Source: Xestospongia muta (lineage: Eukaryota > Porifera > Demospongiae > Haplosclerida > Petrosiidae). From it: 64,000 bases of DNA. Positions 7,159-55,653 of this stretch are shown in pieces (the first letter of the stretch is position 1; every line of letters begins with the position of its first letter). The position numbers were made by a program, and so were the translations under genes. The DNA lies in assembly GCA_963693285.1 (NCBI GenBank), contig OY848919.1:8861461-8925460 (forward strand), read 5' to 3'. The notes below the pieces were generated by a model, which made no database searches, had not been told where the DNA came from, and was given only the letters and a program-made list of their open reading frames with translations.

Positions 7159-10100
7159 CTACACAATTGTTTCCAATTCTAGTAAGAGGACATAATGTTA
7201 ATTTTATAATGTAATATACAATATGGCATACCTTTATATTTTGCCATTATCTTATCAGCTAAATCCTTTTGACTTAAATCATATAAAATATCAAAGAATG
7301 TTCTGAAAACACTGCCATCATGTTTAACACGATCTCGAACTTCGTCAAGAATATTTTCAAGACGTTCCTCCCTTGTATCTCTACTCTCTCTGTCTCTCAC
7401 TCTCTTGTAGACAGACTCAGAAACACTCTCTTTAGAGTAGAGTTTCCTAACTAGAGCAGAATGGTCAATATTTGATTCAACAATGGCATCAGTGAATTGA
7501 ACCAGAACTCTTATAGCAATTTCGGAATTTACTGAAGTACCAATTGGATCACTTGTTTCTGGTATAAAGGTAAAAATTAAATCTATTACAAGTGTTATTA
7601 TTCTAGAATTCACTTTGACATAACAATACATAATTGTTTTCAATTACTAACATTAGACCCTATAAGCCTTAAAGTTTATTTAAAAAGTCAACATTTACTT
7701 TTTTGTTTCTTGGTAAGTGATGAACATATACTTCTATCTTTTTCTGACATCGGCTCATCATAAGAATAATCAAAATCAATGTCTTCTCTTTCTCTCTTGT
7801 CTCCTATAACAATTACATGAATACAATTAGTACCAGGCATTTTTAAAACACAAGTAAAAATTTACCTATCTTTTCATTCTGTCTTCTATCATACAGTAAT
7901 GTTTCTTCATTATTTACTACATATTCATCTGTCTTTGAGTCCTCTTCATCAGATGATGCATGTATGTGAAGTTGTTTTCTGGGCAAACTGTCTTTATCTG
8001 ACAGAATGGAATCACTGTGTGGTCTTTTGCTTCCTAGTATAACATAGAGTATCTCAAAACAATGTTGCAGATAGTTGTGTATGTATGTGTACCTGATCTA
8101 GATAAAAACATACTAAACTGATTTTCTTGTTCCATATCTGCTGACACAGTAGCCTTTATAAATATAAAAGTAACATAAAAAAGCATAGTTTGCTGCAAAA
8201 CTCTACCTTTTTATACCAAATCTTATGGCATTTCAGTAAAGGCATTCCCCCTCTTCTATCAACACATTTAGCAATAATAGGATCATCATATTCACATATT
8301 GCAGGATGCGGAGGTGATGACTGACAAGTGGTACAATCACATCGGAAACCAAAGGAGTGATGAGACTTGTAGGTATAATGTAAAGACTCTGTTACTATTT
8401 TTAAACTTTTATTAAGAGTGCTATATATCTTTGGGCAAAGTTCTTCTAGTGGTATGGCTCCATCAACACCTGGTATACGATCCACCAACACTTCCAGATA
8501 AGTAACATGACTAATAAGTGTGATTTGATCATAGCATTTACCAACAATAAAGGTAATTTTATTGCGATAATGAGGTGATTCCTTTAATGTCCACTTCATT
8601 TTTGACTTTGAAGTGCTACTTAATAAATGAACCACTAAACAACAAAATACACCAACAGGAATATAGCCACAGTTGAAGTATATGATTAAAGGAGTGGGAA
8701 ACGTTAACTTGTCATTGTGTTCTAGTTCTACTGTAGTAGGTTTAAGAGCACAAGGCATAAAGTAATACTTCTCATTTTTATGAGCAACGTTTGCTTCAAA
8801 AGGACCAGCTACAATATGAAGACTCTTTAGCAGAGTAACCAGTCTTAGATGAGTCAGAGGATCTCCCTTTCTTAAAGGTACGGTTGTCAAATAGGACTCT
8901 GTAAACTGACCTGTTATACGAAACTCTGTTTCAATGGCAGCACTACCAGAAAATTCATAAGTAAAACTAGATGTAATTAGTTGTGTGATGCGATCGAATA
9001 CTAGTTGGAGGTCAGTGATAACAATATCTTCTAATCCTTTAACATCAGGATAGTGCATGATACTACCTACTCTGTTATGTAAAAACCACAATGCTGAATT
9101 GAAATCATCTCTGTCTGATATACCACAATTTTTAGCAAGCTTATAACAGGTATCTAGTTTGTGAAAAGATTTCTTACTTTTATGCAACTTTAAATTAAAG
9201 TTACACCATGACACAGGAATGGTCAATTCCTGAAATTTCTTGGAAATTACATTGTGAAGGGTAGTCCGTAAGTGTTCAATATGTTCTTGGTCATTTATGG
9301 TATCAAGAGCGAAAATAGCCTGGTCTTTACCTGAAAATTGGACCAAATTGTCACGGAATAGGTCATCACTGCTCTGAATCTTGAGTTTCAGTTGTTCATT
9401 AACTTCGACTACTTTATGTTCATTGACACAGTCTCTGTGAGTAGCAATTAGAAATGCAGCAGGTTCTGAGACATCTTTAATTGGTAATTCATCAAATCTC
9501 CATCCAATTGTGTTTTGTCTCAAACACGCTATACTGGCTAATGAACGAAAGATGACTTCTTCATGTGTGAAAGATGTTTCGTAAGGTAGAGAATCATCAG
9601 TAGGTGAACGATAAGTAATCATAAAGCGACTTCTCAAATCTTCTGTTAGTTTAAACACAACTAAATTGATTGCTGGACCAGTGATAAGAGCTGGTAGTAT
9701 CTCATGAAATTCTGGTTGTCCACCAGTGTCATTAACATGCAATATAGCATGGCTACTTTCACAAATTTGTTTAGATCTTTTGTCAAACTCAATTCTCTTG
9801 GTGATAGGAATGCTTTTTACTGCTTCTGATAAACTTTGAATAGCTTTCTCATTTGGAGTATGTTTTAAACTTTTCAGAATATACTCATTTGGAACATGTT
9901 CATGTTCATTCCCATCATCACTTTCTATTTCGTCATCTGGAGGGATAACTTCATTAAATCTGCTTACATTATGTATTTCTATTTTTTTAGAGCAAAATGT
10001 CTTGATACCTGGGCTATTGCTGCTATCTTTAATTTGTTTACTTGTCATTGTTTCTTGATGAGGGTTATCATTTTCATGAATCAGCTTTCTTTGCTCAGCG

Positions 10101-12469
10101 ATGTCATTTTGATGTTCATTACCACGAATCTTTTCAGCAGATAATCTTTGTTCATTTGTGCATATACTTAACGATGAATAATTGGCATCTTCAGAGATAT
10201 ATGGTGTCAAAGATATTTTTTGAAATATAAAAGCAGCTTCTTCGTCTACACTATGTTTTCTCCATTCACTGGGGTTCTTGTCTAGTCCAGATACTACAGC
10301 ACTTTCTTTCTGTATTTTTCGAAATGAATCAACTGGTACTGCTACACTGGCAATGCCAGTACTAAAAGAGGGTTCGACAAGAGTCTCATTGAGTAGCCTC
10401 TTCTTTAAGGTACTCTTACCAGCACCTGGTGGTCCTGTTAGGATACATTTAACAACTCGTAAATTTATCAATCCATTACTTTTTATGGCCTGTTGATATT
10501 TGTTGTGATGGTACACTAATCTTTTCAATTTGCAATCAACCATACTGCCAGTTATTGATACAACTGTATGACAGTCAGGATGAGAAGTGAAATATTTTAC
10601 TAATTCAAGGTTTTTCTTGTTAAAAGCAGTTTGCAAAGGTGCAAAGTCATGCCAACCTGGAGCATTAATATCACAACCACACACTTCAACAAGATACATC
10701 ACTAAGTCTAAATTGTTAGAAAATGTACATGCTACATGAAGTGGACGTCTGCCATCATTGTCTACAGCTTCTAGGTCACATTCAGTTAGAGAGGTCAAAA
10801 ACTTTACAACATCTAAGTGATCATAATGACAAGCAAAATGTAAAGGGGTGTAGCCATTTACTCCACTAGCGTTAATATCACATTTTTCTACTTCAACTAG
10901 ATGCTTCACTAATTCTATGCTGTTAATTAATGCACATGCTAAATGAAGTGGTCTGTTGCCATCATTATCTTTAGCTTCAACATCACAATTATAACACATT
11001 GTAAGATGTTTCACAACGTCAAATGCATTGTGTTCACAAGCTCCATGAATGAGTGTACCACCATTAAACCCCTTTGCATTAATGTCACAACCAGCTTCAT
11101 CGATAAGATAACTCACCAATTCTAGATTGCCAGAAAATTTAATGGCTAAATGTAGTGGCCGATTACCATTAGAGTCTTCAATTTCACGATTACATTCAGG
11201 CTTGGATGTCAGAAACTTAACAATCCCAAATTGATTATTCCGACAAGCTATATGGAGGGGTGTATAATTATCTTGCCCATTGGCATTAATATCACAACCT
11301 ACCACTTCAACTAAATGCCTTACTAACTCTATATTGCCTGTAAATTCACAGACAATGTGAAGTGCTCTATCACCAAGTTGGTCTTCAGCTTCTTTGTCGC
11401 ATTCAGGCTTAGAAATAAGGAATTCAATTATTTCAACTTGGTCCTTTTCACAAGCTACAAGCAGGGGTGTATAGCTGCTTGTCCCTTTTGAATTAATATC
11501 ACATCCTGCTACATCTACAAGATACTTTACTAACTTTACGCTGCCTGAATATCCACATGCTATATGAAGTGGTCTGTTACCATCTTTATCTTGAGCTTCT
11601 CGATTACATTTTAAACTAGATGTTATGTACTTCACTGCTTTGAAATTATTATTCCTGCAAGCTATATGTAATGATGTCCACGCATTTGGTCCCTTAGCAT
11701 TTATATCACACTCAGCATTATTGATCAGATATTTCACTAGTTTTGCATTATGAGAAGATGCACTTGCAATGTGTAGTGGTCTGTAACCATCTTCATTTGC
11801 AGTTTCTGTACCTAGACCCACTTTTGTAATAAAGAAATCAGCTATGTTTATTTCACCTAATGTAACAGAATAATGCAAAGGATAGGCTGTCTTAACATCT
11901 AGCCATTCAATGTTATCTTTAGCAACAAGCTTGGCCAACTCTACTTGATTCTCCTGAATCACTCTGTCTATAAAATTTTTGAAGGATATCTTTCTCAGTA
12001 ATGGTACGATTATTTCCCAAGTTGAAATCTTAACACACTGAAATACATCATCAGGAGATAACACAATATTTTGGGTACATATAAATAAAACAATGTCTGA
12101 ATTTTGATTCTTACAAGCATAAAAGAGAGGAGTGTGTCCATGTATGTCACGAAATAACTCCAAACAGTCTTGGCATTGAGTGAACAAGAATCTAACAAAC
12201 TCAAGTTTACCAGTGACACATGATAAATGAAGCAGAGTTGAACCATCATTATTAAATAAGGAACCACAGTCCACAAAACCAGATGCACTAATTAAGTACT
12301 CTAAAACCTCTAACCCACATTGAACAGAACTACAGCACAAGTGAAATAAAGTGTTTCCTTTATCATCATGTATCAAAGGAGAAGCTCCTAGTTCAATAAG
12401 CCTCTTGACATGTTCCAGATCACCTTCAGTACAAGCAGTACGAAGCTCAGTCACTAAGTAAGACTCCAT
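7159..12469 (-). CDS. Gene A: ankyrin-repeat ROCO GTPase with C-terminal CARD-like domain
   Basis: Six exons (12469-8207, 8153-8093, 8033-7866, 7803-7699, 7558-7232, 7178-7159) sum to 4944 nt, 1647 residues. The ATG at 12469 opens a natural ankyrin start. Residues about 8-640 are ankyrin repeats, the later ones in a regular two-repeat super-unit. A Roc-like GTPase follows: P-loop GPPGAGKST (~678), switch II DTGGQPEF (~915), G4 THRD (~1010). A COR domain starts at IPVSW (~1086). A Cys-rich patch (CDCTTC, ~1380) closes the giant first exon. Exons 2-4 are acidic and basic linker, and residues about 1533-1641 form a CARD-like helical domain closely similar to the N-terminal one of gene B. Likely a cytoplasmic sensor or scaffold for death-fold signalling, as in DAPK-type ROCO proteins (inference). 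The last 20-nt exon is tentative; an alternative acceptor lies about 40 nt further on. Confidence 0.87.
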
Positions 12470-13860
12470 TGTAGTTAGCTATAGAGATTTAAAAATAATA
12501 GGAGAGCACTTAAAACACAAAATGACAATCCAAGAACAAATGAAAAAACTTAAGAAAGATATCATTACATACAATGTAATAGTACATCAATAACTAACAG
12601 GTTTTGGTTTATGGTTAAAAAACGATAAATCAGTTAATCAAGATGATGTTTTTTTAGATAGCTACATTATGCATGGCAAACATGTTTAATTTCCAATGTA
12701 AAAGCATTTAGGAAGGGATAGGAAAGCATTCACAGATAATGCTTTCTTTGAAATTTGCTGTAATAGTATTTGATGACACAATAGCATCATATACATGAAC
12801 AATCAGAAGTCAATAATCATAGGAAAAGTGAAAGGGAGAAAAGCACCTAGCAAATAATTGAAATGTCTACTCTCATACATTAGTGATGTTATGGTTTATA
12901 TACACATACTTAAGCAAGAACTGCCGAATGATTTACTGTGCAGTGAATGCTAGTAAAATATAGCTCATAGTGGATTTACCATTCTGCTGTTTTTAAACAG
13001 GATATGGGTAACAGAAGTGCAAGTATAGAGACTAGATAGGCCTCTTTGGCCAGTGGTTTGTATGAGGCTATTCTAATAGCAGTAATAGAGCTAAGAGAAA
13101 CTATAGTTATATTTGTAGCACAGATATCTCAAACATTAAAGTTGAAGAAAACATCCAGGCAGTTTACCTGTGTGTGTCTAAATATAGTAAAGTGATTCAG
13201 AAAGGTAGGCATTTCAATTATATATTTTCATACGTTCTTCACACTACTCTCCAATTTTTTGTAATTATAAGAAACAAAATATATATACATTTCAGGCAAT
13301 AATTATATATACGTTGCATTAAGTAAACATGTAGGTGCTATTGTTTATGGTCTGGGAAGACAGTGGCTTCTTTAAGCTTTCAATATTGTTGCCATTTAAA
13401 CCAGAGTTTCCTTGAACTCGTGGAAGTCATGACATTATCATCCTCCTTCAATATAATCTATAAGTTTACAATCTCTGATAGACACAATATGATACTTTAC
13501 ATGAGTTTTCTTGTTTTGAAGACAGCTCAAAACATCAAAGTTGCAATTTAACTATCACTGACTTATTCCTTATAATTCGAGTTATGTCATTTATAATAAT
13601 CTTGGGAATTTTCAGCTATTTTGATAGTTTGATATAATTTAATCTGATTGGTGGATTTTCTCCAGGTATGTTGTGGTCAGTCATCAATGTTATATTCTGT
13701 TCAAGTTGAGTTGGTCCCTTCATTAAAAAAGGTGTTGTATGCATGGAATGTAAGGTCAGGTATTTCCTCATCTATTCATATGCAATTAGCGCTGAAGTAC
13801 ATTTAATATTATTCATTGTTAATTCACGTGAATGTCATGCGAACAGATCACGTTTTCTTT
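12470..13860. other. Upstream region of gene A, no gene seen
   Basis: About 1.4 kb without a supportable gene. The TAATTA/GCATGCGC promoter module seen before genes B, C and D was not found here, so gene A seems to be driven differently. No TATA or other clear promoter signal could be assigned. Confidence 0.45.
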
Positions 13861-14106
13861 CGTGCTCGTGAAAATGCAAAGGGAAAAAGACTGAAATCAC
13901 AAACAAAGGAGGTTGTTGCGAATGTCTATGACTATTTTGAGGAAGTCAGCAGGCATCAATAGACTCAAGGACCTCTTAAATGAACCTACGATGCCACAGG
14001 AGTTTCACGTACAAGCATCAAGAAGCTATGGAAAGAGAAAGTTGACACTGGTGGAGCTGGTTTGTCAACTCCAACAAGAGATACAGACACTCCAGACACA
14101 TGTTAG
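13861..14106 (+). pseudogene. HTH N-terminal fragment of a transposase (Tc1/IS630-like?)
   Basis: One frame reads RARENAKGKRLKSQTKEVV, then NVYDYFEEVSRHQ, a stop, then after a second stop TYDATGVSRTSIKKLWKE and a short Ser/Thr/Pro-rich tail. The KGKRL..QTKEVV..VY.YF block plus ATGVSR.SI resembles the helix-turn-helix start of DDE transposases common in invertebrate genomes. Two stops break it and no catalytic domain follows. Family assignment is tentative. Confidence 0.5.
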
Positions 14107-14109
14107 TTG

Positions 14110-18364: not shown

Positions 18365-19230
18365 TTACAGTTTATTGTGTTGAAACACGCCTGCTACATA
18401 GTCTGATGAAGAGATTATATTAGTGCTAAATCTTTCTTTGAGTTCCTTAATGTGTTGATCTTTCTCAATAGCTCTCTTTTTCCGACAAGATGGGCATTCA
18501 CCTGCTGCAAGCTGCTGTATTAAAACCTCTGTACTGACTTGTTCTCTCTGAAATACCTCAACACATTCAAAGATATTCGGATGGGATTTACCAACTACTC
18601 GCTGTAGACGATTGTGCCAACCCTCCAAGTGATTGTTTGATCGTAGTCCTTCAGTCTCATATAAGTTCCAATCTGCTGTATGGAATGTTCCAGCTATCCA
18701 TGTTGTTTCAAAATATGCAATGAATTCATCAATTCTTGGTAACTCTGGAGTATCTGCTTTTATTCTTTGCCATGAAAGATGAACAAAACAAATAGGAACA
18801 AAGGCAAGAGCTGCTGTTCTACATATAAATGACTTTAGTTGATCTGTATTTTGTTTGTACTGGTTTTGCAGACCAATCTCTTGTATTTTTCTCATAATTG
18901 CCTGGCAGAAATGATAATAGCGTCCTTGATGTGTAGATGTTGGACAATTTAATTGTATTGCTTGTTTGATGGCAAGTTCAAAGTCAGCAACAACTGTCTC
19001 AGGTTCAAATTATAGTTGTAGATTTTGAGTTTTCAATTTTATGATATGAAACAGTCTGTTGTAAGTAGCCGTAGATTTATTTGGCAAGAGTGCATAAATT
19101 AGTGGGTGTTGCTTACATTGTTAAATGCATGTATGATAAAGATTTGATAAAAGAGTTTCGAACAAGTCTGGAAAGTCCCATCAACGTAGATTGTATCACC
19201 CTCACAAAGAATCTTTATGTCAGTGTCTGT
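18365..19230 (-). pseudogene. MULE transposase, broken
   Basis: Read on the minus strand, the piece starts near 19230 with EGDTIYVDGTFQTC, the first catalytic Asp block of the MULE domain. After a shift comes KQHPLIYALLPNK, an in-frame stop, then FEPETVVADFELAI, the second Asp block, and GRYYHFCQAIMRKIQEIGL, the C/HxH block. The tail (18365-18895) contains RSNNHLEGWHNRL, typical of the MULE C-terminus, and a CPSC pair. One frameshift and one stop inactivate it. This superfamily makes 9-bp target duplications, which matches the three non-autonomous elements nearby; whether this transposase mobilised them is inference. Confidence 0.85.
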
Positions 19231-21965: not shown

Positions 21966-24900
21966 ATGACGGAAGGAGGCAAATTACCTGTGGAATCATG
22001 TAAGTGGTTACTCAATGATTGATCTGTATGTTCAAATATATCCAGCTATATCTTATGTTTATGGGCTTACAGTCCTTAATTTTTATTTTTTGAAAATTAT
22101 TTAAAAATAAGTTCTTCTATATAAAATACTTTTAAAAATATTTAAAAAGGTTTTTATGTTAAGTAAATTAGGTTACGTACTGCAACATTCATGATGTAAT
22201 AAAATCACTTTCATAGAGTGTTTTGCAATTTAAAAAAAATCCAATTATAGTTTTTCCAAATACCAAAAAAATTACATATGGGTTTCTGATACGGCGCTTC
22301 ATTGATTTTAAAGCTTTTATTGAACTCTCATAACTTTCTGATTCATCTAATTTAATCGTTACGCATTTCTCTGAAAAAATCATACATAATTTTAAAGAGA
22401 TCATGCTATTGTAGACATCTAAAGTTTCGTAGTTGCAAATTATTAAAACTACCTCACAACAACAGCTTTACTAATCTGCCTTTTTCTTTAATTTTTGTGA
22501 TGAGTATTCAAAATGAAAGATGTCTGTTTCCATCTGTGAACCTTCGTATTTCCTTCATTATAACTACAAAAGTATCACCATCATTACTAAAATGATTAAT
22601 TAAAGTGTCATCATGGTCTTCATAAATGAATAATAACACTTTTAACAAGAAAAGAAATACAGTAACTGTCACTTTCCAGCTAAACTAATGAAGTAAAAAA
22701 TATGAAAAAAAATATAAAAAGGGAACCAGATGGTAAGAACTCTTTATAACAACATAAACATTTTTGTTAAAAATTTTGACCCTGTAACCCTTAATATGAG
22801 AGGGCCTGGCATACTATGTTACATCACTAACTAATTAATGTATTATAAATATCATAATCACCATATTTATTTAAATAGTAATTAGTTCATAATTTATATC
22901 TATACTCTAGATGGTACTCTGAATTCTGATTTAGCTAGACAAGCTTTACTTCAATGTATAGACATTATTGTTGAGTCGTCTATAGACGCCTTTGCTCTGG
23001 CAAGGAGGCTTTATTCAGAAGAGATTATTTCTGAAGATGTTTACAAGAGAGTAAGAGATAAGGCCAGTAGGGATTCAAATGCAAAGTGTCTTGAAATTCT
23101 TCTTGATGATATAAAGGATCGTGTCAGATATGATGCTGGTATCTTGACTAAATTTGTGGATATTTTAATAGATCGTTTACATCGACAAGATTTAGCTGAT
23201 AAAATCATGTCAAAATATAAAGGTATTATACATTATCAATACATGTAATGAAAAATAAAGAGTTAAAATGTTTATAGTATAATTGATCTATTTTTAATAG
23301 TTGTACATATTATCTCATTTTGTATAATGTATATTATATTATTTAATACACTATATAATTAGATTATTAGTAGAAGTTATGATAGTTATATTATTATTGT
23401 CCAGGTCTTGATGGACAAGATAAAGAAAAGGAGTTGATATCCACTCATAACAAAAAGAAAGGTATGATGTGATAATTAAAATCAATTATTAAATCTGTTC
23501 TTAATCAGAAACAACAATAATGTACATGAGATGTGCCTTAGAAATAACTCTATTGCCTGGTGTATAGGTCCTGTATTGTTTCTTACTATATGTTTAGTTG
23601 ATTGAGTAAGATCTCTTAGTAATAATAGTAGAAGAGGATAAAGTGAACATATCAGAGACACATGAGGAGAAAACAATGAATAATAATCATGCATGAATGA
23701 TAAGTAGTCATACCACCACATCTCTTCTTCTATGAGGTCAATACATATTAGGTTCTTAAGTCTAATCATGATTATATCATACTAGTTAAGATATTCTCTT
23801 GCTTCTAGTGATGTTGTCTCTGGCATTACAATTAAATACAATAGGGACATTATTAGTTTGAGTTTGAGTGGTCATATCACTAGTTGGATCTTCTGAAGGT
23901 ACTATGTCAGTAATAGGAGAATTCTCTTGATTGTTATTAACAATATCTCATCGATTTCTCCTTAACACTTAACCAGATAGACAGAAAGGCAGGCAAAGTA
24001 TATAACCCTCACCCACACAGAGATTAGCAAGGGTTAACAAACATAAATTATGAACATATTTTCACTAATTTAAAATTAAAATGTAAAGAACAAAAACAAG
24101 TATATAAGAATTTCAAAAAAGTATTAAATGTAGTGATGGCAGTAAAACTCAAGTCCAAGGTCGGAATGGCAGTATCAACATCCTTACATAGTATCCACAC
24201 AAAAGTACCTGAAAACAAAATTGTATATTATCTATGTTTAATAGCCTTTTACTTGACTTCATATGGAACTGCTACAACTAATGTAGCAAATTAAATGTTG
24301 TGCTCTTGATATTGTAACTAGAGACATCCACTTGTGCTTGTTTGAGATGTTTTGCTACCATCTCTAGATTTAATGTGTTTTTTCAGGAATTTTTTAAACT
24401 TACAAATGTTATCATGTGTGGAAAGAGCAGAGTTCATTATTCCACATACTATACGTGCATTGTATCATGAATAATTGTTGTCTCTCTTCTTTTGTAATAG
24501 ATTATTCTGGCTTGCTTGCAAAATCTCTTAAAGAAGGTCATGTTAAAGTTATGTATACCAAACTCTCTGTTTCTGGTCCTCCAGGAAGTGGGAAGTCTTG
24601 TGTTATGAAACTGCTACTTGATGAGGATGAGGATCCTCCGCTTGTTCATTGTAGTACTCCAGTATCTACGAACCCTGAAATACGAATGGTAGAGACCTTC
24701 CAAGTTAAAGAATCTCAGTTTTGGAAGAAGATAAAGCTTGAGTCGTTAAAGGAGATGGTTATCGAAGCCATCAAGCATTACTTAAATGAACATGATTTAT
24801 CTGCTCCTATTGTTACATTGTCTATGGAGAATGTCACACAGCATCCAATGTCCTTATCCCCTTCAGTATATAAGCATGTTCTAGAGATGTTATCAAGTGT

Positions 24901-36000: not shown

Positions 36001-39000
36001 AACATTTCGAATGTAATAATATAGAATTGGAATATATCTTGGAAGTGCTTTTATCTAGTGACCACAAGAATTTATTATTGACTTTGGTTGAGAGGAGATT
36101 GACAATCATAGCACAAAAAAGCCCAACTGGAGCACCATTTCTAAAGTAAAACAGTAATGCAGTGTTAGTAGAGGATTCAAATGGAATTGCATTTGAAGGG
36201 TCAGTTAATGGTAATAAGGCTGGCATAAAATATTTGTCATTAGGTGGTTTGCTATTAGGCAATTTCACTGCTAATAGAAGATGAGTGAAAATACTAAACA
36301 AATGTGATTTAAAATCAATAGCTTCTTCAGATTTTAAATCAGTAACTGCCTTGGATATATCATGAAACTTCTTAAAGTGTTCTTCATGTGAAAAAATATC
36401 ACTGGAAATTATACCAAAATTAGCCATGTCTGGCCCTGCTAGTGTGCCAGGACCTATATTCATTCCATTACGTACTTTACAGACAAGAATCATCAGTTCA
36501 TTCACTATTTCAATGAGGCTATGTGGATCAATAAAGGCAAGATTAGTGATTTCTTTTGGATAGTAGAGAATAGAGTTTAGAAGAGAGAAAAATCTTAGTG
36601 CAGGCTCAATTTCATCATCTTCCAAACCCAACGCAATACCTAAAGACATGCACTCTTCCAGTGTAAGAACACCACAACTTGAAGAAGCGCTATCACGTAG
36701 AAGAATTTCATAAGCATACCATGTTAATGGTACATCAACTTCAAAAGCTTGTTTACTTAATTCATTACGAATATTACTAATTGTGCTCTTCAGTTCATCA
36801 TCAAATGTTTCTTCAGGATCAGATGCTTTACGACCATCAACTTTAAAGAGAAGTTCTCCTGAAGTAGGATTTTGGTATAACAAATTATCAGACACAGATT
36901 GAAAAATCTGTTTAAGTTGATCCACTTTATGTGCAATCGCTTCATTAACTTGTCCAAGCTCACATTTATCTCCATGAGTAGCAATAGTAATAACTTTTAA
37001 TCTATCTGGAGGTTTTATTGCTGAGGAAAGACGACGGCTGCCTTCACTGGTCATATCATTTCGTTGTTCATAATTCCTAAACGTGATCATACTTATAAGT
37101 CGTCTTAAGAGAGTCTCAACTTGTAACGAATATTCACTTACCAAGTATTTCTTCCCATCTTCACATTGTAATTCAGCGGAGGATTGACTAGAGAGGTCTT
37201 GAGCTAGATTGATAACTAACATAAGAACTGATACACACGGTATGAAAGCTTGCAAGATCTGCTGAAATTGGATTTGACCTCCAGAATCAATAAAATAAAG
37301 CCAATCTTTATACAGTGTTAATTTGTCAGGCCTGCTAGAAACTTTGTTGAGGAGGTTTGACAGCTGTTTTGCTAAATCGTCATGTCTCGTCTCTGTTAAT
37401 TGTGGACTAGGATTAGATTCTGGTGATATCTCAGGACATAAAGATATATCATCATAACTTGCATTTTCAATATGAGGTGTTAAAGTATTGTTGTCTGAAA
37501 TACTTATATGACTTAATGGGGCATCAGCTACATCTAGATGTGTTTCACTAACATCCTGTTCAACATCCTGTTGCTGAACTTCCATGCAATTGTCATGGAC
37601 ACCACTGTCTCCTTTTTTGTTGTTTTTATGTTCATTTGACGGTGTTCTACTCCTTTCATCACCTTTTTCCATTACACTCTTGATATCATTTGCAAACATT
37701 TCAACTATATTTGTATCACTGATAAGTTCCCATTTCTTATCTTCATTTTGGCCATATGTTTGCATTGAAAAATCTCCAACTGCTACTTGTGGACGCTCAG
37801 CAATACCAGTGCTCTCTTGCTTATGGTAGCGTTGAGAAAGAATAAGAGATTTCACTGATGTCTTGCCAACTCGAGCTGGACCTTGTACAAGGACTTTTGA
37901 AACTTTAGCTTGGATCTTACCTCCCTTTTTAATGGCTTCACGAATATATTTGTGATCTAAAAAAGAGACAAACCTAATCAACCAAGTTCAAACTATCCAG
38001 ATTGTATATGTAGCACAGTCTAATAGCAAAGTAAGTTTACAAAGCAAACTTAACAAGATATTATTAGTTCAAGTATATTTAAAAATGATTGACAAGAAAT
38101 AACAAAAAACAGGTAGGGATGAGGTGTTCATACAACACATGACAAAGATGATTGCTGCATGAATATCAAGACAACACCCCAAGGAATGTTTCTTGTATGG
38201 TAACAATACAAGATGCTTTAATTGATTGGAAAATTTGCCTAGATACATCAAATGTACCAACCAACCTAATAGTCAAGAAAAAAAAAAGATCAACGAATTA
38301 GGTTCTTGTAGACCACTAACCCTTAAAAGAAGAGAGTTTTAGATCAAGATTCAGAACCTGACAAGTCTCAGTTCTAAACTGACTTTGACATTGTCACAAT
38401 GGAAAAAAGTTGTCGCTGACGAATACTTTATTTCCTATTGTTATTAATGCTTTGATAATTTTGTTCAACTTTGTTGTGATAGTAGATGACAAAAGTCAAG
38501 AACAGATCACATGCAAGCTGGCTTAAAGTATTAAACTGTACTTCATATAGAATCTTAGTGATGTAAGCACAATAAAAGTATTTAATACAGTGCATGATGT
38601 ATCAAAAGGTGTTGACAATGCTATATGTAAATTGTATTAGGTAAAGTTTTTTTCTAATGCTATATGAGATACTTTTCACAAAAGATGTAGTCGAGATGTT
38701 GTATGAACACACACCCAGAATGCAATATATTCTGAAGGCATGAGAACAGAACAGTGGTTTAAATGATTTATAGTTGATGCTTGGGTGGATCAATGGCACT
38801 CAACAAGGCTACAAAGAAGCATGATAATTGTTTTAACTACTTTTCCTAGCTGTAAGTGATGAAAAGCAACAGCTCAGTCACAAAAATGACCACAACACAC
38901 AGTGTTGCATAAGGTTTAATTTGATACAGCACTGTCACTGCCTTTAATATGCCCACACATCATTCTATAAATACACAATATTGAGGTGATTATGCTTTAT

Positions 39001-40860: not shown

Positions 40861-43002
40861 ATATATAAAGCAAAACGAAACATTACAATTATAACAATTG
40901 TTCTAATGTAGTTTTAAGAGTGCTATTACTAAGATTAGAGTTGCAATAAGAGTACATTTAATTTTCTGGTTGTGATGTTCACTAGCAGTCAATGTGTGTA
41001 GATTAATTTATTTGTCTGCTTTAATATTCAATAGTCTATTTTAATTTTTAGGCAATTATATTCTTAATTAAATTAATTAATCAAATACTACATACCTGAC
41101 TTATCCATTACAAAATAGAGTCTATCTTTAAGACTAGGACAAATCTTGCAAATGTCCTCATGTTGTTTGGATAATGTGAGCTGCTGTATTGTAATGTTTT
41201 TAACTAGCTCTTCACAAATTGTCTTAATATCGTCATATTTCAGTGAAGTATTGCGGAGGTATAGTTCTTTCAATGACGTCGTTGTTTTTATTAGTTCAAC
41301 TATTGCACTGGTACTGACTGAAGTGATCCCATGATTATTGCTGACAGCTAAACTAGTAAGTCTTCGATTTTTAGCAATCCCTTTACAGATGAAATGGACA
41401 CCTTTATCAGTGATGTCACAGTTGGAGAGATCTACTGTTTTCAATGTGTCATTATTACTTAACACACCAGACAAGCAAATGACATCGTCATCTGTCATAG
41501 GAACATTCCATAGGAATAGTGCCTCAAGAGAAGTGTTAGGATGTGCTAGAGCATCAATAACTTGTTTGATACTACCAGTAGGGAGAGAGGAAGACATAAA
41601 GAATAGTTCTTTCATTCCAATAACTTTCTTTGACAATGTTGACATACACATATTGTCCAGCGAAGTGTCCTCTATAGAAAATTCCCTCACTGCAAACTGA
41701 TCGAGATTATCTATAAGTATTAGGGCACTTTTAGTAGTTGATGAACGAAGTTCAATACGCCATTTTCTTGTCTTTCGTTCTTGTTTTAATCTACCCACAA
41801 TATTTTCACATTGTTCAGTACTTGGTGAGATGATTGAAACACTATTGTTATTATGTCTCCAATAAGCATTCCCAGTGTCACCTGTTGTGTAAAACAGAGT
41901 AACTGTAGTACACACAAAATTAATATATGCATAAATGATATAATTAAATACTTAGAGAACGTAAGTCTATTGTCCACACTGATAGTGATCTCTGTAAAAC
42001 CAGAGCTTGATTCTTGAGCTAGCTGTTATATTTATTTGAATGAGATATAACTTTATACTTTAGTTGATAAAACTCAATTAAAATCCAGCTAAGCATTCTG
42101 AAAAATACTTAAAATGCATGTACATGTCATTTACGAATTTAGAAGGTCAACATCTAGTTTATACTGTACAATCTAGGACTATAAATGTATTTAAACCTGG
42201 CAAAACCCTTAGCTATATAATATGTGGTAATAACATCAATTATTTTCAAGTTCAGTGTCATTGCTTTTGATCAAATATCTTGAAAAGATGAACATAAGCA
42301 ATTAAGCATCGCATTGTCTATCCTCATTTCTATTGTATACAAGGCAGAATGAAAAACAATTTTATGTAGCTAAAGTTAATAAATATAATGACATTTTTAT
42401 TAACTTACGTTTCAGTCCATATTTAGGCAATATCTTCTTAGCCATATCTCCAAACACTTTCCACAACAAGCCATTTATATCATCAAGAGTGAGGTCATCT
42501 GTTTGTTGCCATTCAATAACAAACGTGATTGACTCATATTTGAAAGAAGTTGAGACAATCGTTACATTCTCACTTCCCAATACTCTGTGTTTAAACTTCT
42601 CACAGATCTCATAAACTGCAGATTTATAGGCTGTGATATGATGTCTGACATTTTCAATATTATAATGGTCAACAATTGTCTCTAAGCAGGTAATATTAGT
42701 TATGGTACATTGCTTTTTTATTAACACAATAACATCATTAAGTGATTCAGCTGTTGACAGATGAGGTTTTAATTCGTGGAAACGTGTTCCACGAAACTTT
42801 TTGACTTCTTCAAGTGAAGGGATGCCCTCAGTAATAAGAGGTACAATAGTATCAAGAAGCTCTTGAAATTTTGTTTTTACTTGATCAAAATAATTCTTAT
42901 AACCAGGAGATAGATAAACCTCTATTTCGCCACCTAAAAAGTGATAAATATTACATTGAAAAGATGTAACAGCACCTCACCTAGCATTTCTTTTGCTGTC
43001 AT
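33024..43002 (-). CDS. Gene D: LRR, ZU5-like, ROCO GTPase, double death domain protein
   Basis: Fifteen exons: 43002-42981, 42933-42409, 41881-41096, 40597-40211, 40137-40013, 39946-39812, 39760-39586, 39269-39240, 37956-35689, 35633-35343, 35005-34841, 34784-34647, 34492-34220, 33361-33176, 33130-33024. They sum to 5613 nt, 1870 residues, all in phase. Residues 8-182 are an unnamed N-terminal domain. Residues about 183-444 hold RNase-inhibitor-type LRRs. Residues 445-573 are ZU5-like, and 574-718 a beta-rich, possibly UPA-like, region. The Roc part has P-loop GPARVGKTS (~752), DSGGQIQF (~952) and THGD (~1057); COR starts at VPLTW (~1140). A Cys pair (CPCG) follows near 1437. Death domains lie at 1485-1581 and 1683-1773, separated by an acidic exon (SEEEASLSKSE) and a linker; the tail is rich in Lys, Ser and Arg. 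Likely an intracellular receptor-like scaffold for death-domain signalling (inference). Confidence 0.87.
40828..40861. repeat. (GT)n microsatellite in an intron of gene D
   Basis: About sixteen GT units lie in the intron between the LRR exon and the ZU5-like exon. Confidence 0.9.
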
Positions 43003-43035
43003 AGCTGCAATGTAAGCAAGGGTGGGGCTCAAGCA

Positions 43036-44957: not shown

Positions 44958-44966
44958 GTCTTTGTA

Positions 44967-47990: not shown

Positions 47991-48138
47991 AGACAAGTCA
48001 TTAACCTAACTTTCTGTAAAATGTGCAATTAATTTAACACATTATCAGTACATGTATCATCTTGTTGAACTCCGCATAACAACTGAGCTATATATAAATT
48101 TATATATACTTCGTATTTGAACACAAATTTGCAAATTA

Positions 48139-48176
48139 GTTCCGCCCTAATTAAATCGTTTTGAGCATGCGCAGAT
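48139..48176 (+). promoter_or_regulatory. Shared promoter module of gene C (NRF1-like)
   Basis: GTTCCGCCCTAATTAAAT is followed by TTGAGCATGCGCAGATTG; the start codon of gene C is 48 bp downstream. Same order and spacing as before genes B and D. Confidence 0.6.
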
Positions 48177-48223
48177 TGTATGAGCCTTACTCTTCTGTTG
48201 TACACTTTGTTTTCCCACCTACT

Positions 48224-51200
48224 ATGGCAGAACAAGCCGATGATTTGTATTTCCAACAGTTTTTGAACGAAAAACCAACTGTTACTGAATTACTTGAACA
48301 CGTCAGAGTTGATACCAAGTGGTACACGTTTGGTGTACTACTCAATTTAGATACCCTTAAACTAGATGATATCAGCTTGATGAATGAAGCCACTGACTTT
48401 AAAGTTTTAAAGATGTTTGAGTTATGGCTGACTACGAACCCAAATGCTACAAGAAGAGAAATTATAGAAACGCTCCAGAAGGAAGCTATTAGTGAGAGTG
48501 CTGTTGCTGAGGAATATATGAAGGTATTGTGGAAGACTATTAGAGAAAGTGAGTGATACATAATTAGTATTAATGTGTGTTAAAAGTTATAGCATCATCT
48601 CGTAATCCTTGGTAGCTAGACAGACCCAACTCTTGTGATTGAACAATTTATATGGAGAAGGGTCTAGTTAAATTGTAATGCGTCACAAAGTAAGCATTTC
48701 AATGTTAACAATCATACATGTCGTGGTCATAATGATATCTCATAAAAGAGTTATAAAGTGGTTATCTCAATGTGTGAAGCCAGTGACCCTAATACTAGTA
48801 GTAGTAACTTGATCTTTTATGTAGTAGCCAGTACTTTAGCTAGTTCTTTGATTGTTTTAATTTATTAAGCTCCACCTTCCTGTTTCAAGTGTCACATTAC
48901 ATTATCAAATTTTTAGTTTTTCCCATTATTATTATAGACAAGTTGTTCTATTACAATTTTCTAGACCCTTTCCCATCCTTTATTATATGATAGTGGTTGT
49001 GTCTGGCTTGTGAAACTGTAGGGGCAAGGGTTGTAATAGATACTTTGAGTATGTGTGTGACTGTCTGTTACTTTTTCTTTAGTATGATATTGAAACTCAA
49101 AAACTTTAGTCCTATACAATGACAATTGCTAGTGTTTTTTGTATCACATTCTGCTCTTTTGAATTCGATATTGAATAAGAAAACCTACTGTCTTTATAAT
49201 AGAAATAGTGAATGCATTGTGTCTTTATCTACTCTTTAAATAGAATGTACATACTCACTAGTACTGTCCATGTCTTTATTTCTGTTTGCTTTCTGTCTCT
49301 GCTTGTAATAGCAAAATGTAATAATTGTATTTCTATTGTTTAATAACAATAATTATTATACTAGTATAATATAATTATAAGTAATATTAGAATGATTGAA
49401 AGTATTCCATTCTCTCCAATTAGATACTGATATAAACAAGTTGAGACGTGTTATTGGTAATGTCCTTCCTCAGCACCATTCTTCATTACATGAATCAAGT
49501 AGAGATAGTCTACAGTTACTAGCTACTGAAATGTATGCTACTGGTCTTATTAGCTCAGCAGTTCGACAGTCACCTTCATTTCATAATATCTTCGCTGACT
49601 TTACAGCAGTACTGGGTTTTATGAGTACTGTCTCTGAAATAGAGCAAAACTGTGCCATGTTTCTGTCAATACTTACTAAAATAGGAGGTCCATGTGCTAC
49701 AGCTAGTCAAGCCCTTCAACATGACTTCATTAAAAACAGTAAAGCTGAATGTAGAGTAGAACTACAATTAGGTATGTGATTTAATTATAATTATGAACAA
49801 AAGGATAATGATAGGGAAATTAAAAATGAAAGTATCTAAACAATTCTATTTATTAGTATTATGTATCAGGCATATGGTAGTGTTGCCTATGTAAGGATAG
49901 TATTATGTACTAGTTTGTTCTTATTTTTCCATTTTACGCAACAATAACTACAAAAGTTGAAGCCTTATCAAGAATTATTTTACACAGAATGGTATATTTT
50001 CACATGAGGTATACTGCTTTACTAGTATTATTTTGAGTGCTTTTGACAATGAAAGTACCGGTTTGCATTGGGGTTGGAAGTAACCTATAAAAGACAGCAT
50101 TTTTGTTGGTTAATATCCTTTCATGAGGAAAAACAGAGTCGTTAACGGAAGTTTGTATTCTTCTCTATCATGAGACCTGTTCTAACTTACATTCTTGTGT
50201 GGTAAGGCCCTTTGTTTAAAGAGGAAGGCTCTGGTAGTGCATTCCTGGTGAAACCATAGAATTTTGAACCTGTGTCTGGAAAACCACATTGTTTTTATAA
50301 TTGAGTGTGATTGTGAACTGTAATATAAGATGTATGAATGAATTATTCTTTACTGTTTACTGTTGGAATATGGCTTGTTCAGCCATTCTCATTGCATTTG
50401 GTTTTGTGTTACATTTCCTTTTTATTCATGCTCACTAAAATAGTTATGTTTTTAGTCACACAGAGAGGAAGGTGCTGGATTAGCTTATGAATACATATAA
50501 TAAAAATTGAAGGATTAAAATTATTTATAGTACAATTGATCTTTCTTATAGTTGTACATATATTCTCATTTAGTATAATATATATTATATTATTTAATAC
50601 ACTATGTAATTAATAATTATTAGTAGAAGATATGATAGTTATATTATTATTGTCCAGATCTTAATAGACCAGATAAAGAAAAGTTGAAATCCACTCTTAT
50701 GAAAAAGAAAGGTATGACATCATAATTATAATCAGTTATTAATTTACTTCTGGAGTGATGAATAAAATTAATCTATATAATGTAACTGCTGAGCACACAG
50801 TGATCAATGATTATTATTATTATTACAACAACAGCAGTACTATTAAAACAATGTAGGATGATTTTTACATGTTATAATCTTGTTAATTGCTGTCATTTTA
50901 TAAGAAGTGTTTTTAGTCTGCCTATAATATAGTGAGAAGTATTTGTAATTGTGTCAATCTTCTTCATGATAGGTCTAGTTAACATTGACTAATTGTAGTT
51001 GAAGATCAGTTTTTTAATAAATCCTAAGAGGACACCTTCACCTAATAACTACTTGACCTAGATTAAAGACGAGAACGAAAACAAGTTTATATTTTCACGC
51101 TTTATTAGTACTATCACTTCCTATTGACTGTATATTTATATCACCTTGAAATCAGTCTTCGTCATTGCTCAATTCTACACCAATCATAATATTTTTACTT

Positions 51201-54200
51201 GTTACAAAGATGTTGGTCAACATTTTTACTCATAATTACTTCTTTCGCAATTATGATGATGAATATTACAAAACATATTTAATTTCTTAATTAGAACATT
51301 TAATTCCAAAATAACTTTAAAGACAATTTAGTTATCTGCAACTGTCTAACAGCTATCAGAACATAGATATAGACTACAGACCATTAAATATAACATTCTT
51401 CTTGCCACAAGGTTTACATGTGAAGTTTATATTTTCATTTTTCAAAGTTCAAAAGTAGTGGCATATCTTCAAACTTTAGGACATAATTTATATGGGATAG
51501 CTACCATTATGAAAGATGTCTTGAGCTTGTTGGAAAAAGATGTTGCTTGTAACAATTGGTTCCAATGTTCTAACTTTGTGAGAGCAAACATTTGAAACAT
51601 CTACAGCTTATCAATCCATCTTTATCTACAAAAGAGTTCATGTAGACATAGAGAGGCCCTTGTTATTGACACAGTAATTATTTATGTATGGAGAAGTATA
51701 AATTCAATTATGATGCTGAAGATATAACAAATTCATTATAATGTTGTCATTATATATACTAGTAAACTTTTTACAAACTACCTATATTTTGTATCATTTT
51801 ATGAAGATTTTGTCTTTATTTTACATTAGATTATTCTGACTTACTTGATAAAGCTCGTAAAGAGGGTTATGTCAAAATTAAATGGACCAAAGTATCTGTT
51901 TCTGGTCCTTCAGGAAGTGGAAAATCATCATTCATGAAACTATTACTTAATAAGCCTGCACCAGTTAATCATGTGCACTCCAGTAACTACAGTACCTGAA
52001 GTAAGGATTATAACCATCATGGTTGATGAAAAAGGTTCATCTATCCAGTCTTGGAATGAAATAAACCTTGAATCTCTAAAGGAGATGATTGCCAAAGCCA
52101 TCAAGAAAGGAGTTCAGACAGTAACCGATAAAGCACAAGAAATAAATCTACTTATAAAAACTGCACCATCTCCTGCTTCTAATGTTTCCAAAGATATTCC
52201 ATTTAAATTATCTAGTATGAAGGAATTAGAAACTCTTTCCCACCCTCCAGTTTCTGATGTTACCAAAGATATCTTAGAGATGTTACCTGATGTGGAGGGG
52301 TCTACTCAGCTGTTTGAGTCACATTGGATATATGCAATAGACTCTGGAGGTCAAGCTGCTTTTCTAGACATTGCTCCTGGATTGTTACGTTATAATTCAG
52401 TGAATATTCTCACACACAAACTGAATGAAAAACTTGACGACAAAGTTAAATTTTACTACAGTGTTGATGGAAAACAAATTGGCAAGCCAATGGAACAACA
52501 AGTCACAAACCGACAACTTCTCGAAGCATCATTTCGATCTCTAACATCTGTACTTCCACCTAATTTGCCTTCAAGTATTCCTCGTTCTTTGCAAGATCCA
52601 CTTTGTCTAGTACTTGGAACATTTTATGATAAGAGTGGAAATTGTAGTGAATCCTTAGATGACAAAAATTCTATTCTTTGGTCTTCATTGAAGCCATATG
52701 AAGAATTTACTTATGTGTATCGTACTGCTGGAGAAAAAATCATCCATCCTTTAAATGCTGTTTCTAGAGGTGAACACGAGACAAAGCTGGCTGATGAAAT
52801 TCGTCGTAAAATAAGCCAATCATACATTGAGGCAGACATTCCAATTCGATGGTTCTTGTTCAGGCTAGAGTTAGAGAAGAAAGCTTCTCAAGATATTATC
52901 AGCAAGTCCATTTGTATCACAATTGGCAGTGGTCTTGACATGAATGAGGACGATGTAGAGGCTGCTTTAATGTACTATCATGATTTGACCATTTATCTTT
53001 ATTTTCCTAAAGTCCTCTCTAATGTTGTCTTTCTTAACCCCCAACCAATTCTTAATAAACTGTCTAAATTGATCAGTATTTCCTTTGTTGATAACATTAG
53101 TTGCTTAGAGGATCGAGGTATCTGTATATCTCTTGGAGCTCATAAGGAACTCAAGGAAAAAGGAATGTTTTCAAAAAAACTTCTAACTGAATGTAAATAT
53201 TTTTCACAAATATTTACAGAATTCTCATCTGATGACTTCTTGAAGTTAATGGGGCATTTGTTGATTTTGTCTCCTCTACCTGATCTACAAAAGTATTTCC
53301 TTCCTTGTGTCCTGGAAACTGCTAATGATAACGAGTTGGAGTCTTTGAAAAGTGATTCCACAGATCCTCTTATTTTAACATGGAATCAGAAGCCACTTCC
53401 ACAGGGTGTGTTTCCTGCATTGGTTGTCAACCTTCTCTCTCGCAAACGTTCACCAACATTTAATCTTTCACGTTCCAAAAAGCCATATCGTAATGCTATT
53501 CTTTTATCTTGTGGAACTAGTCTATGGGGAGCAGTTCTATTAGTAGATGGTATTGAGAGGCTGGAGATATTTTGTAAAGACAATTGCCATCGTATTTATC
53601 AAGTTATTAAAAAGGGAATTAAGATTGTCATTGAGAAATTTCATTACAGTGACAGCTTAAAAGTTCCTGAAGTGTGGTTTCATTGTTATGTTTGCAAAAG
53701 AAAAGATCACTTTTGTTGTTTGAATGAAGGCAAAAATAGACTCACATGTTGCAACAATGAAATGGCTACTGTTCCTATTGACAGCACACCTGCTGTATCA
53801 TGGCTTTTAGCTGAAGATAAAGGTGAGTTTACAAATAACTAATTACAATGATTACTCTGACTAATAGTATTTAAATGATGCCTTTTCTGGTTAATATGTT
53901 TAGATAGGAATAATAATTCCAGATGTACTATATGCTTGATAGCAAAATTTATAAAGTAAAGTATGGTGTGTATCCAAACTCTGTAGTTTTGCAGGCCACT
54001 AGGACTTTACTTCATCAATCTCCAGAAATAATTTATTAGAAGATGTGAAATAGAGGACACAACTGATGAGAAATAATTTACAGTTAGCATTAAAAGAGTT
54101 AAGGTCTAGGCATACAGAAGGTGTCAATTATTTTATAGTGTTACGTATTAGTATTGCATTTAGTTTAAGACTCTTTTAAAGTGAAAAGTTTAGTGGTAGA

Positions 54201-55653
54201 GGTTAGTTACGATTTAATTTATAATTATGTATTAGGGACAACCCATGATGAAACTTGGGAACATAACTCAACATCAGAGGAAGTTCTATTAGAATCAGAT
54301 GTGGATTTTTTTCAGTCTGACAGTGAATTTGAGTCAGAGTCATGTGAAAAGACTCCTCAAAGGAAAATAATAAAAGAAACACACAACATAAAGGTAGTAT
54401 AATAATAGTCCCACCTTAATGAATATCAATATGAGATATAAGTGCTTTCTTGGTATCATAACTATTAGCAGAATTAAATGATCTTTAATAACATAATATT
54501 TCTTAACTTTAACTTAACTTTAATATTTCTTTCTTCATAGAGATAAAACCTAAGAAACATGTGTTACTAAGGTCACTCTCTTCAATCAATAATAAGTGGC
54601 GTGAGCTTGGAGATCTACTTGGAGTAGATTCAGACACTCTTGAAAGCTTATCCAAATCTTCATTTTCTGACTGTGTAAAGATGTCAACAATGTTGCAAAG
54701 CTGGTTGGATAATGAACCAACACCTACTACATGGAATAATATGATTAACATAATAGGGGGACCTCTAAAGAAGAAAAGTCTTGCTCTTAAGATCTGTCAA
54801 AAACTTAAATCAAGTAATTATAAGTTGTTGTGACCAATTACACATGCAAGCATTAATAACTTCATCCTCAAAAATAATTACTGTACATACAAAATGCAAT
54901 TAACTACATTTTTAATGCGGAACTTTTAGGGAAATGCTTTGTTTTCATGTTTTAACAATTAATTTCACTTACCTTTTTTTAAAAAGGATCTGTTGATCTA
55001 TGCCTATTTGATAAATAGCACATCATATGATGCATGTGTTTCATTGTTTGACAATGGTTTAACTTGTGAGCTATTGTCTGTTACAACTATAAGCTTAACA
55101 AACACTCAAAGTGAGCTCTTAAAGAAGTACTACTTGTAAGACACAATTGTTTATGCAACATCCACTGAAGTTAAACTATTATCAATTACCACACCTATGG
55201 TGTAACTGCCTGCATATTTGGCATATTTTGACACATGGTGCAAGCCATTTTAAAGTCTTTAATTTTTTTTCACAGGAACTAAAAAAAGAAAAGGACAACA
55301 GGCGGAGGAAATAGACTTTGACCTGTTAGAAGTTAGTAAAAAAATACCACACAAGAGGCCCAGACATCATTATGACCATACATCATCTGACAGTGACTCA
55401 TACTCATATGACACCCACTCAAGCAAACATAGAAAGAAACAGACAAGGAGATCTCATAAGAAAAAAAGCAAACATGAAAGAAGACACCACAAGAAACATA
55501 AAGGTATTATTATATAGATATGGCTAAGAAATATGACTTGTCACAGAACACAAAAGGCGAAGATCAGAAGACAGATTTCCTAATTACTCTGGTAGACATT
55601 GTTCATTTCAAAAATACAGAGCTTGTTGCAAAAGATCTTACAATGATTATTAG
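48224..55653 (+). CDS. Gene C: death domain, ROCO GTPase, death domain; one frameshift
   Basis: Exons 48224-48548, 49424-49771, 50658-50711, 51830-53822, 54236-54393, 54543-54813, 55276-55503, 55547-55653. Exon 1 is a death domain (KWYTFGVLLNLDTLKLDD). Exon 2 is an all-helical domain of unknown type, possibly death-fold. The GTPase has P-loop GPSGSGKSS, DSGGQAAF and GTFYDK; COR begins IPIRWFLFRLELE; a Cys patch (CYVC, CC) follows. Then an acidic exon, a second death domain (SWLDNEPTPTTWNN) and a His/Lys/Arg-rich tail. In the large exon the frame changes between about 51956 and 51985, about 40 codons in, compared with gene B; the remaining 620 codons are open. It is either a very young pseudogene or a sequencing error. 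The last exon has the same length (107 nt) as that of gene D. The ATG at 48224 is chosen because it follows the promoter module. Confidence 0.8.

What the first reader, a model, noticed from the sequence alone, without database searches (positions are those of the whole stretch)
7159..55653. Cluster of ROCO GTPases with swappable death-fold, ankyrin, LRR and ZU5 modules
Four genes share a Roc-like GTPase plus COR core, seen in DxGGQ, COR motifs and a Cys patch, but carry different partners: ankyrin plus CARD-like (A), CARD-like plus death domain (B), two N-terminal helical domains plus death domain (C), LRR plus ZU5-like plus two death domains (D). Known animal ROCO-death proteins such as DAPK are single genes; a local cluster with interchangeable sensor ends looks like an NLR-type diversified intracellular receptor family built on Roc-COR instead of NACHT. 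The receptor role is inference.
Basis: partly seen in the sequence, partly recalled or inferred. Interest (0 to 1): 0.88.

Follow-up and report, generated by a model that had tools for sequence, protein, structure and literature searches.

The report
Mix-and-match GTPase death-fold receptor genes
The animal genome behind this window, probably a sponge's, holds at least 272 places coding for all or part of the core of one GTPase family, and exons predicted to be interchangeable join that core to different sensor and cell-death parts, so the proteins likely work as an internal alarm system much like NLR immune receptors.

Summary
New: module exons are predicted to be flanked by phase-1 introns on both sides (acceptors 61 of 64, donors 50 of 58; controls 36-46%), so they can be exchanged in frame. 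DNA shows exchange: gene C's exon Y with flanking intron is 87-90% identical to one in a gene with another core type; gene D's 5' part is 98-100% identical to a paralog 230 kb away, its 3' part mostly near 82%.
The immune/cell-death receptor role is inferred; transcripts, species and signalling are untested; gene C has a frame break. New variant of a known kind: ROCO proteins shuffled like a receptor repertoire.

The parts
10487..12478 (-). Gene A: ankyrin-repeat array, same open frame as the core (first ATG at 12469)
   Evidence: Pfam Ank_2 6.1e-96, 9 stretches
8159..10486 (-). Gene A: Roc-COR core (GPPGAGKS, DTGGQ, ATHRD) with C-terminal Cys patch
   Evidence: COR-A 1.1e-7 and Roc 2e-4, both under cut-off; aligned in A2; motifs
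7182..7558 (-). Gene A: CARD-fold exon X at the C-terminal side (predicted acceptor at 7558, phase 1)
   Evidence: 49% identical to the modelled X of gene B; splice sites
22911..23222 (+). Gene B: CARD-fold exon X, predicted 1-1 exon of 312 bases
24501..26456 (+). Gene B: Roc-COR core, predicted 1-1 exon of 1956 bases
27170..27459 (+). Gene B: C-terminal death-domain exon
   Evidence: Pfam Death 0.0019, under cut-off; in frame after splicing
42365..42976 (-). Possible 5' exon of gene D, no Pfam family; membership in D uncertain
   Evidence: donor AAC|GTAAGT phase 1 at 42409 fits the LRR acceptor; no Pfam hit
41096..41881 (-). Gene D: LRR exon, predicted 1-1, 786 bases
   Evidence: Pfam LRR_6 2.3e-6; donor CAG|GTATGT kept in L015
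39586..40597 (-). Gene D: ZU5-like stretch, four predicted exons (two of three internal introns phase 0)
   Evidence: splice sites; ZU5 only through relative L023; no direct Pfam hit
35689..37956 (-). Gene D: Roc-COR core, predicted 1-1 exon; identity to the paralog in L014 drops at about 36.1-36.7 kb
   Evidence: alignment; identity profile
35343..35633 (-). Gene D: death domain 1, predicted 1-1 exon
   Evidence: Pfam Death 0.0042, under cut-off
34210..34492 (-). Gene D: death domain 2
   Evidence: Pfam Death 0.002, under cut-off; 56% identical to gene B's DD
48155..48548 (+). Gene C: N-terminal death domain exon
   Evidence: Pfam Death 5.1e-5, above cut-off
49424..49771 (+). Gene C: helical exon Y, predicted 1-1, 348 bases, no Pfam family; at least 150 matches genome-wide
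   Evidence: shared with a D-type gene in L017 together with flanking intron
51830..53822 (+). Gene C: Roc-COR core; frame break near 51.96-51.98 kb, P-loop part in one frame, rest in another
   Evidence: COR-A 2e-8, just under cut-off; frames read apart; relative P0001 reads through in one frame
54541..54813 (+). Gene C: C-terminal death-domain exon
   Evidence: Pfam Death 1.1e-4, 22.7 bits against a cut-off of 22.6
55276..55514 (+). Gene C: Arg/Lys/His-rich tail exon (predicted); region 55248-56082 is 87.5% identical to DNA behind a D-type core in L016

Best explanation
The four genes belong to a family of at least 272 Roc-COR core loci in this genome whose module exons, predicted to be symmetric phase-1 cassettes, the DNA shows in several cases exchanged between paralogs, and the proteins likely act as NLR-like intracellular immune or cell-death receptors with a GTPase in place of NACHT. 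How it would work: (1) shown: a conserved Roc-COR core, with P-loop, DxGGQ and T-x-x-D motifs kept, stands beside varying ankyrin, LRR, ZU5-like, CARD, DD and Y modules; (2) shown in DNA: exon Y with its introns and the 5' part of gene D are shared with other family members far beyond what their other parts are; (3) predicted: nearly every module exon begins and ends in phase 1, so a new module can be spliced in frame without repair; (4) inferred from Roco biochemistry: binding of a ligand by the repeats would shift the Roc-COR monomer-dimer cycle; (5) inferred from CARD and DD biology: the clustered CARDs and DDs would recruit death-fold adaptors and start inflammation-like or cell-death signalling.
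Against: No transcript, ligand, challenge expression or downstream partner was seen. Gene models come from splice consensus; where sites scored alike, or the top one cut into the core (24585 in B, 51914 in C), I took the site outside the domain. A module beside a core could belong to a neighbouring gene; the labels rest on neighbourhood in pieces of up to 10 kb, and L010 was cut before any X could be seen, so the true count of changes may be 4. The 272 include partial cores and possible pseudogenes; gene C has a frame break. Phase rows are paralogs, not independent; sites under the score threshold were dropped uncounted; six A-type core acceptors may not be real because ankyrins and core share, or nearly share, an open frame (without them 56 of 58). 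A-type cores end in phase-0 donors (7 of the 8 exceptions). The identity step between D and L014 could also come from assembly. No listed X, Y or ZU5 match lies within 6 kb on the same strand of a listed NACHT (0 of 150, 150 and 61), so an adaptor pool shared with NLRs is not shown. 97 of 150 X and 128 of 150 Y matches lie near no listed core: the cassettes are not exclusive to this family. LRR and ankyrin comparisons show no positive selection (0.31-0.58).
Confidence: 0.58

Rival explanations
1. A DAPK-like apoptosis or stress regulator family: the proteins transduce internal stress, not pathogen signals, and the copy number reflects tandem duplication without receptor diversification.
For: Gene A's order (ankyrin, Roc-COR, death-fold) is that of DAPK without the kinase (DAPK order from PMC6320773, passages); dN/dS of cores and repeats is below 1.
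Against: No kinase among the frames of the four genes that were scanned; at least 272 loci with differing ends look like a receptor repertoire, not a conserved regulator.
Confidence: 0.2
2. Self/non-self (allorecognition) or symbiont-tolerance genes: the exon-shuffled family labels individuals or manages resident microbes, and the death-fold ends trigger rejection.
For: Exchange between paralogs 230 kb apart would make individuals differ; PMC8195603 (passages) names sponges among animals with allo-incompatibility and with large death-fold/TRADD-N expansions.
Against: No polymorphism data here; membrane anchors were not searched for.
Confidence: 0.1
3. The death-fold, LRR and ZU5 exons belong to separate small genes that merely neighbour Roc-COR genes.
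For: No RNA was available; predicted introns before the cores are 1.3-2.1 kb; death-fold exons are very common in this genome (1488 first-look Death candidates), and many X and Y lie near no listed core.
Against: In-phase splice sites on both sides of nearly every module; one open frame of 1482 aa over 8 exons and 852 aa over 3; LRR donor kept in L015 with the stop lost.
Confidence: 0.07
4. A decaying, mostly non-functional duplication cluster.
For: Gene C frame break; 8 of 150 COR-A matches hold stops, and core matches hold more.
Against: dN/dS 0.27-0.50 for cores; P-loop, G3 and G4 kept in 24, 25 and 24 of 25 cores; many open frames of about 700 aa.
Confidence: 0.05

Closest known systems
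DAPK1 (order from PMC6320773, passages)
   Same: Roc-COR with ankyrin repeats before and a death-fold domain behind (gene A)
   Different: No kinase found; CARD as well as DD; death-fold on either side of the core; very many copies with differing ends
Brown algal LRR-ROCO candidate immune receptors (PMC11378527, abstract and passages; Zambounis 2012 as cited there)
   Same: Expanded Roc-COR genes thought to be immune receptors, diversified by exon shuffling
   Different: [quoted passage not shown] here whole domains of several kinds sit in predicted phase-1 exons
NLRs of sponges (PMC12909245, passages)
   Same: NTPase core with LRR or other sensor plus CARD/DD, partly in clusters
   Different: Core is Roc-COR, not NACHT; no listed X, Y or ZU5 match lies near a listed NACHT here
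Amphimedon NCOA6-type TRADD-N expansion (PMC8195603, section 10 read whole, other passages)
   Same: Hundreds of proteins with 1-3 death-like domains and variable ends incl. ankyrin and LRR
   Different: That section names no AP-GTPase or Roc-COR core for the sponge; TRADD-N is the hub there, Roc-COR here. Its figures and source data were not seen
Bacterial AP-GTPase (Roc)-COR conflict systems (PMC8195603, passages)
   Same: Roc-COR as switch with LRR sensor and variable end
   Different: Variable ends there are mostly effectors (GT4, TIR, caspase and others); here adaptors of the death fold
ROCO-TIR and ROCO-death-TIR proteins of sea anemones (PMC5094078) and ROCO-TIR proteins of Aplysia (PMC9334734), passages
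   Same: Roc-COR fused to innate-immune adaptor domains
   Different: Reported as a few genes, with TIR; no shuffled family described in the passages seen

Membership tests
ROCO (Roc-COR) proteins | Ras-like Roc domain with P-loop, G3 and G4 motifs | tested here: met
   P-loop in 56 of 70 rows of A2 (14 lack it, at least some because the row starts behind it), DxGGQ-type 68 of 70, G4-like 70 of 70; 24, 25 and 24 of 25 tree cores; Roc fold
ROCO (Roc-COR) proteins | COR domain directly after Roc | tested here: met
   COR-A in 38 of 70 rows at E 0.01 (gene B itself under cut-off); model aligned to LRRK2 1329-1867; that this spans COR-A and COR-B is recalled
ROCO (Roc-COR) proteins | GTP binding and hydrolysis | not testable with these tools
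   needs protein
DAPK subgroup | N-terminal Ser/Thr kinase | tested here: not met
   no kinase hit in the scanned frames of the window's genes; a SH2-tyrosine-kinase frame beside one D-type core in L026 may or may not be fused
DAPK subgroup | ankyrins before Roc-COR, death domain after | tested here: inconclusive
   A has ankyrins before and a CARD after; no ankyrin hit in B, C, D
NLR | NACHT NTPase | tested here: not met
   no NACHT hit among Pfam matches of the cores; fold is Roc-COR
NLR | sensor repeats plus death-fold adaptor around an NTPase | tested here: met
   A and D only; B and C show no recognised repeat sensor
CARD (module X) | six-helix CARD fold | tested here: met
   [not shown]
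Death domain (modules of B, C, D) | Pfam Death above cut-off | tested here: inconclusive
   2 of 5 window DDs above cut-off, 3 below; profile of 21 against PDB: THO1 0.0039, an unrelated regulator 0.018, FADD 0.025
ZU5 (gene D) | Pfam ZU5 | tested here: inconclusive
   no direct hit; only through L023, itself under cut-off
Exon-shuffled module system | module exons with the same phase on both sides | tested here: met
   predicted sites: 61 of 64 acceptors, 50 of 58 donors phase 1; controls 36-46%; exceptions mainly A-type core ends

The most novel reading that the evidence does not exclude
An animal runs a second NLR-scale receptor system with Roc-COR instead of NACHT: hundreds of GTPase receptors assembled from a shared library of phase-1 exon cassettes (CARD, DD, Y, LRR, ZU5, core) that is still being reshuffled between genes by recombination, outnumbering the NLRs in the same genome and possibly differing from one individual to the next.
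Probability: 0.45. Interest if true: 0.88.

Novelty: new variant of a known kind. Interest (0 to 1): 0.76.

Why it matters
If true, the NLR design (sensor, NTPase switch, death-fold adaptor) does not depend on a NACHT or NB-ARC switch: an animal lineage scaled up the Roc-COR GTPase, known in people mainly from LRRK2 and DAPK1, into a receptor repertoire. The one-phase exon grammar gives a concrete, testable route by which intracellular signalling proteins can be reassembled without breaking the frame, and offers a natural series of Roc-COR switches with different inputs and outputs.

Tried and rejected
NACHT or AAA identity of the P-loop part: single-sequence Pfam hits to AAA_22 or ABC were weak and the fold is Roc-COR. 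ZU5 as a genome-wide partner: 61 Pfam ZU5 matches (150 scored of 182 candidates), 1 near a listed core. Cassettes shared with NLRs: none within 6 kb on the same strand of a listed NACHT. Relation of Y to X by profile comparison: no support (probability 1.3%). PDB profile searches with X and Y gave no death-fold hit; phmmer with gene C's core gave no hit. Positive selection: none in the LRR/ankyrin comparisons (4 of 16, one without usable dS); X and Y reach 1.01 and 1.12, one pair each. Literature: in the rows listed by nine searches (most lists were cut at 10-20 rows) I saw no paper on a sponge Roc-COR expansion; the library holds only open-licence papers, so this is no proof of absence. Species: not named by any tool; 'probably a sponge' rests on genome size and on reported death-fold and NLR expansions of Amphimedon and is inference. 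Comparison of 272 with 97: the Roc-COR loci come from four queries, NACHT from one family search, so the ratio is not like for like.

Full report
What is there. The window is C3:8861461-8925460 of an unnamed 158 Mb genome in 28 contigs. It holds four genes with a Roc-COR core. Gene A (-, 7.2-12.5 kb): ankyrin repeats and core in one 1440-aa frame, then a CARD-fold exon. Gene B (+, 22.9-27.5 kb): CARD-fold exon, core, death domain (DD). Gene D (-, 34.2-41.9 kb, perhaps from 43.0): LRR, ZU5-like stretch, core, DD, DD. Gene C (+, 48.2-55.5 kb): DD, helical exon Y, core, DD, basic tail. Gene C's core has one frame break near 51.96-51.98 kb; the relative P0001 reads through that place in one frame.

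How many. COR-A: 150 scored of 261 candidates. Core queries A, D and B: 76, 89 and 110 matches from 58, 57 and 64 scored of 706, 754 and 954 candidates. Merged by place these give 272 loci, 198 of them within 50 kb of another; the window's cluster holds 32 between C3:8.574 and 9.469 Mb, of A, B and D types. The searches are capped, so more loci are likely; but partial cores count, so intact genes may be fewer. NACHT: 98 matches, 97 over the cut-off, from 102 scored of 155 candidates in one family search; the two counts are not like for like.

The exon grammar. For each module exon in the window and the 28 loci then held I took the best-scoring acceptor and donor beside the domain without any demand on phase; rows came from the window and 19 of the 28 loci. 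Acceptors: phase 1 in 61 of 64; donors: phase 1 in 50 of 58. Seven of the eight phase-0 donors are A-type core ends. Six A-type core acceptors may not be real because ankyrins and core share, or nearly share, an open frame; without them 56 of 58. The same scoring on frames without module hits gave phase 1 in 82 of 179 and 34 of 94 acceptors and in 48 of 109 and 15 of 36 donors. Five loci on other contigs gave 11 of 12. Two of three introns inside the ZU5-like stretch are phase 0. With the chosen junctions gene D reads open for 1482 aa over eight exons and gene B for 852 aa over three. Exon lengths of LRR, X, Y, core and DD1 are multiples of three. The LRR exon of D ends in CAG|GTATGT; in L015 this donor is kept while the stop codon behind it is not. 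So modules could be inserted, lost or exchanged in introns without a frame error. That exons with one phase on both sides mark exon shuffling is general knowledge (recalled).

Exchange seen in DNA. (a) Window 49206-50536, the Y exon with its introns, is 87-90% identical to L017:961-2318, where Y stands before a D-type core; gene C's core is B-type (57% to B), and D and B cores share 23%. (b) Window 55248-56082, gene C's tail, is 87.5% identical to L016:7719-8559 behind a D-type core. (c) Gene D and the paralog in L014, 230 kb away, are 98-100% identical from 42.3 down to about 36.7 kb, 91-95% to 36.1 kb, and 75-93%, mostly near 82%, from there to 33.9 kb: a crossover or conversion boundary inside the core exon, unless it is an assembly error. 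(d) B, C and D share DD and linker DNA at 71-81%. In a maximum-likelihood tree of 25 cores, starred sister pairs stand beside different modules (L012 DD, L013 Y-Y; L016 DD-DD, L017 X-Y before and DD-X behind; L026 DD, L027 X), and the last module changes at least five times over 22 labelled rows. Labels rest on neighbourhood; L010 was cut before an X could be seen, so four is possible.

The cassettes are not exclusive. Of 150 X matches 53 lie within 6 kb on the same strand of a listed core (random mean 2.7), of 150 Y matches 22 (random mean 2.1); the rest lie near no listed core. No X, Y or ZU5 match lies near a listed NACHT.

Constraint. dN/dS is 0.27-0.50 for five core comparisons and 0.56 for one whole frame, 0.31-0.58 for ankyrin and LRR where dS is usable, 0.47 and 0.56 for DDs, 0.57 and 0.81 for the ZU5-like exon, and 1.01 and 1.12 for the N-side X and Y pairs, one pair each. 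Cores are kept; N-side cassettes look looser.

Function. Roco proteins cycle between monomer and dimer with nucleotide (PMC6337361, passages), and CARDs and DDs assemble signalling complexes (general knowledge). The simplest joint reading is a receptor in which ankyrin, LRR or ZU5-like parts sense, Roc-COR switches, and CARD/DD/Y recruit adaptors. Steps after the architecture are inferred. Against over-reading: B and C have no recognised sensor repeat, so they could be signalling partners of the others and not receptors.

What is known. DAPK order and Roco classes: PMC6320773 and PMC6337361 (passages). Brown algal ROCO exon shuffling with 72-bp phase-2 LRR exons and a single LRR-ROC-COR architecture: PMC11378527 (passages). 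Amphimedon expansion of 357 TRADD-N proteins with death-like domains and variable ends: PMC8195603 (section 10 and passages); it places AP-GTPase-COR systems in bacteria and in DAPK. ROCO-TIR or ROCO-death-TIR fusions: PMC5094078, PMC9334734 (passages). GTPases are among genes regulated after LPS in the sponge Halichondria, with no hit for ROCO, COR domain or LRRK in that text: PMC8242945 (passages). Sponge NLRs: PMC12909245 (passages; no hit for ROCO or GTPase). No row listed by nine searches described this family.

Verdict. New are the scale, the one-phase cassette grammar for intracellular death-fold modules, and DNA-level exchange between core types.

Noticed in passing
605-1039 (+): hAT transposase C-terminal dimerisation region (Pfam 4.4e-22); a further frame at 128-526 may belong to the same element.
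   Followed up: no
18365-19009 (-): Weak MULE transposase match (0.0025, under cut-off).
   Followed up: no
57832-59526 (+): Three neighbouring frames of 143-253 aa without Pfam hit; perhaps one transposon-derived gene (guess).
   Followed up: partly
28483-28738 (+): Short stretch 69% identical to part of gene B's core (25713-25984): a core fragment.
   Followed up: no
L026:2320-3764 (+): SH2-tyrosine-kinase frame (and one SH3 hit among the frames scanned) directly before a D-type core; fused or neighbouring is not known.
   Followed up: partly
L028:7740-9824 (-): Ankyrin plus Roc-like frame that no window module matched: a further Roc type.
   Followed up: no
L018:3311-9050 (-): A B-type core lies just before a D-type core on the same strand; two genes or a double-core gene.
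   Followed up: no
window 8159-10486, 24398-26497, 35633-37987, 51938-53842: Cys/His patch with near-constant spacing at the end of the core; possibly a metal site. Not compared with LRRK2 or DAPK.
   Followed up: partly
G000:C1:9916889-9926217 (-): Six X matches about 1.8 kb apart, five with the same score: a tandem X array.
   Followed up: no
genome-wide: 1488 first-look candidates for the Death family in a 158 Mb genome; only 150 scored.
   Followed up: no
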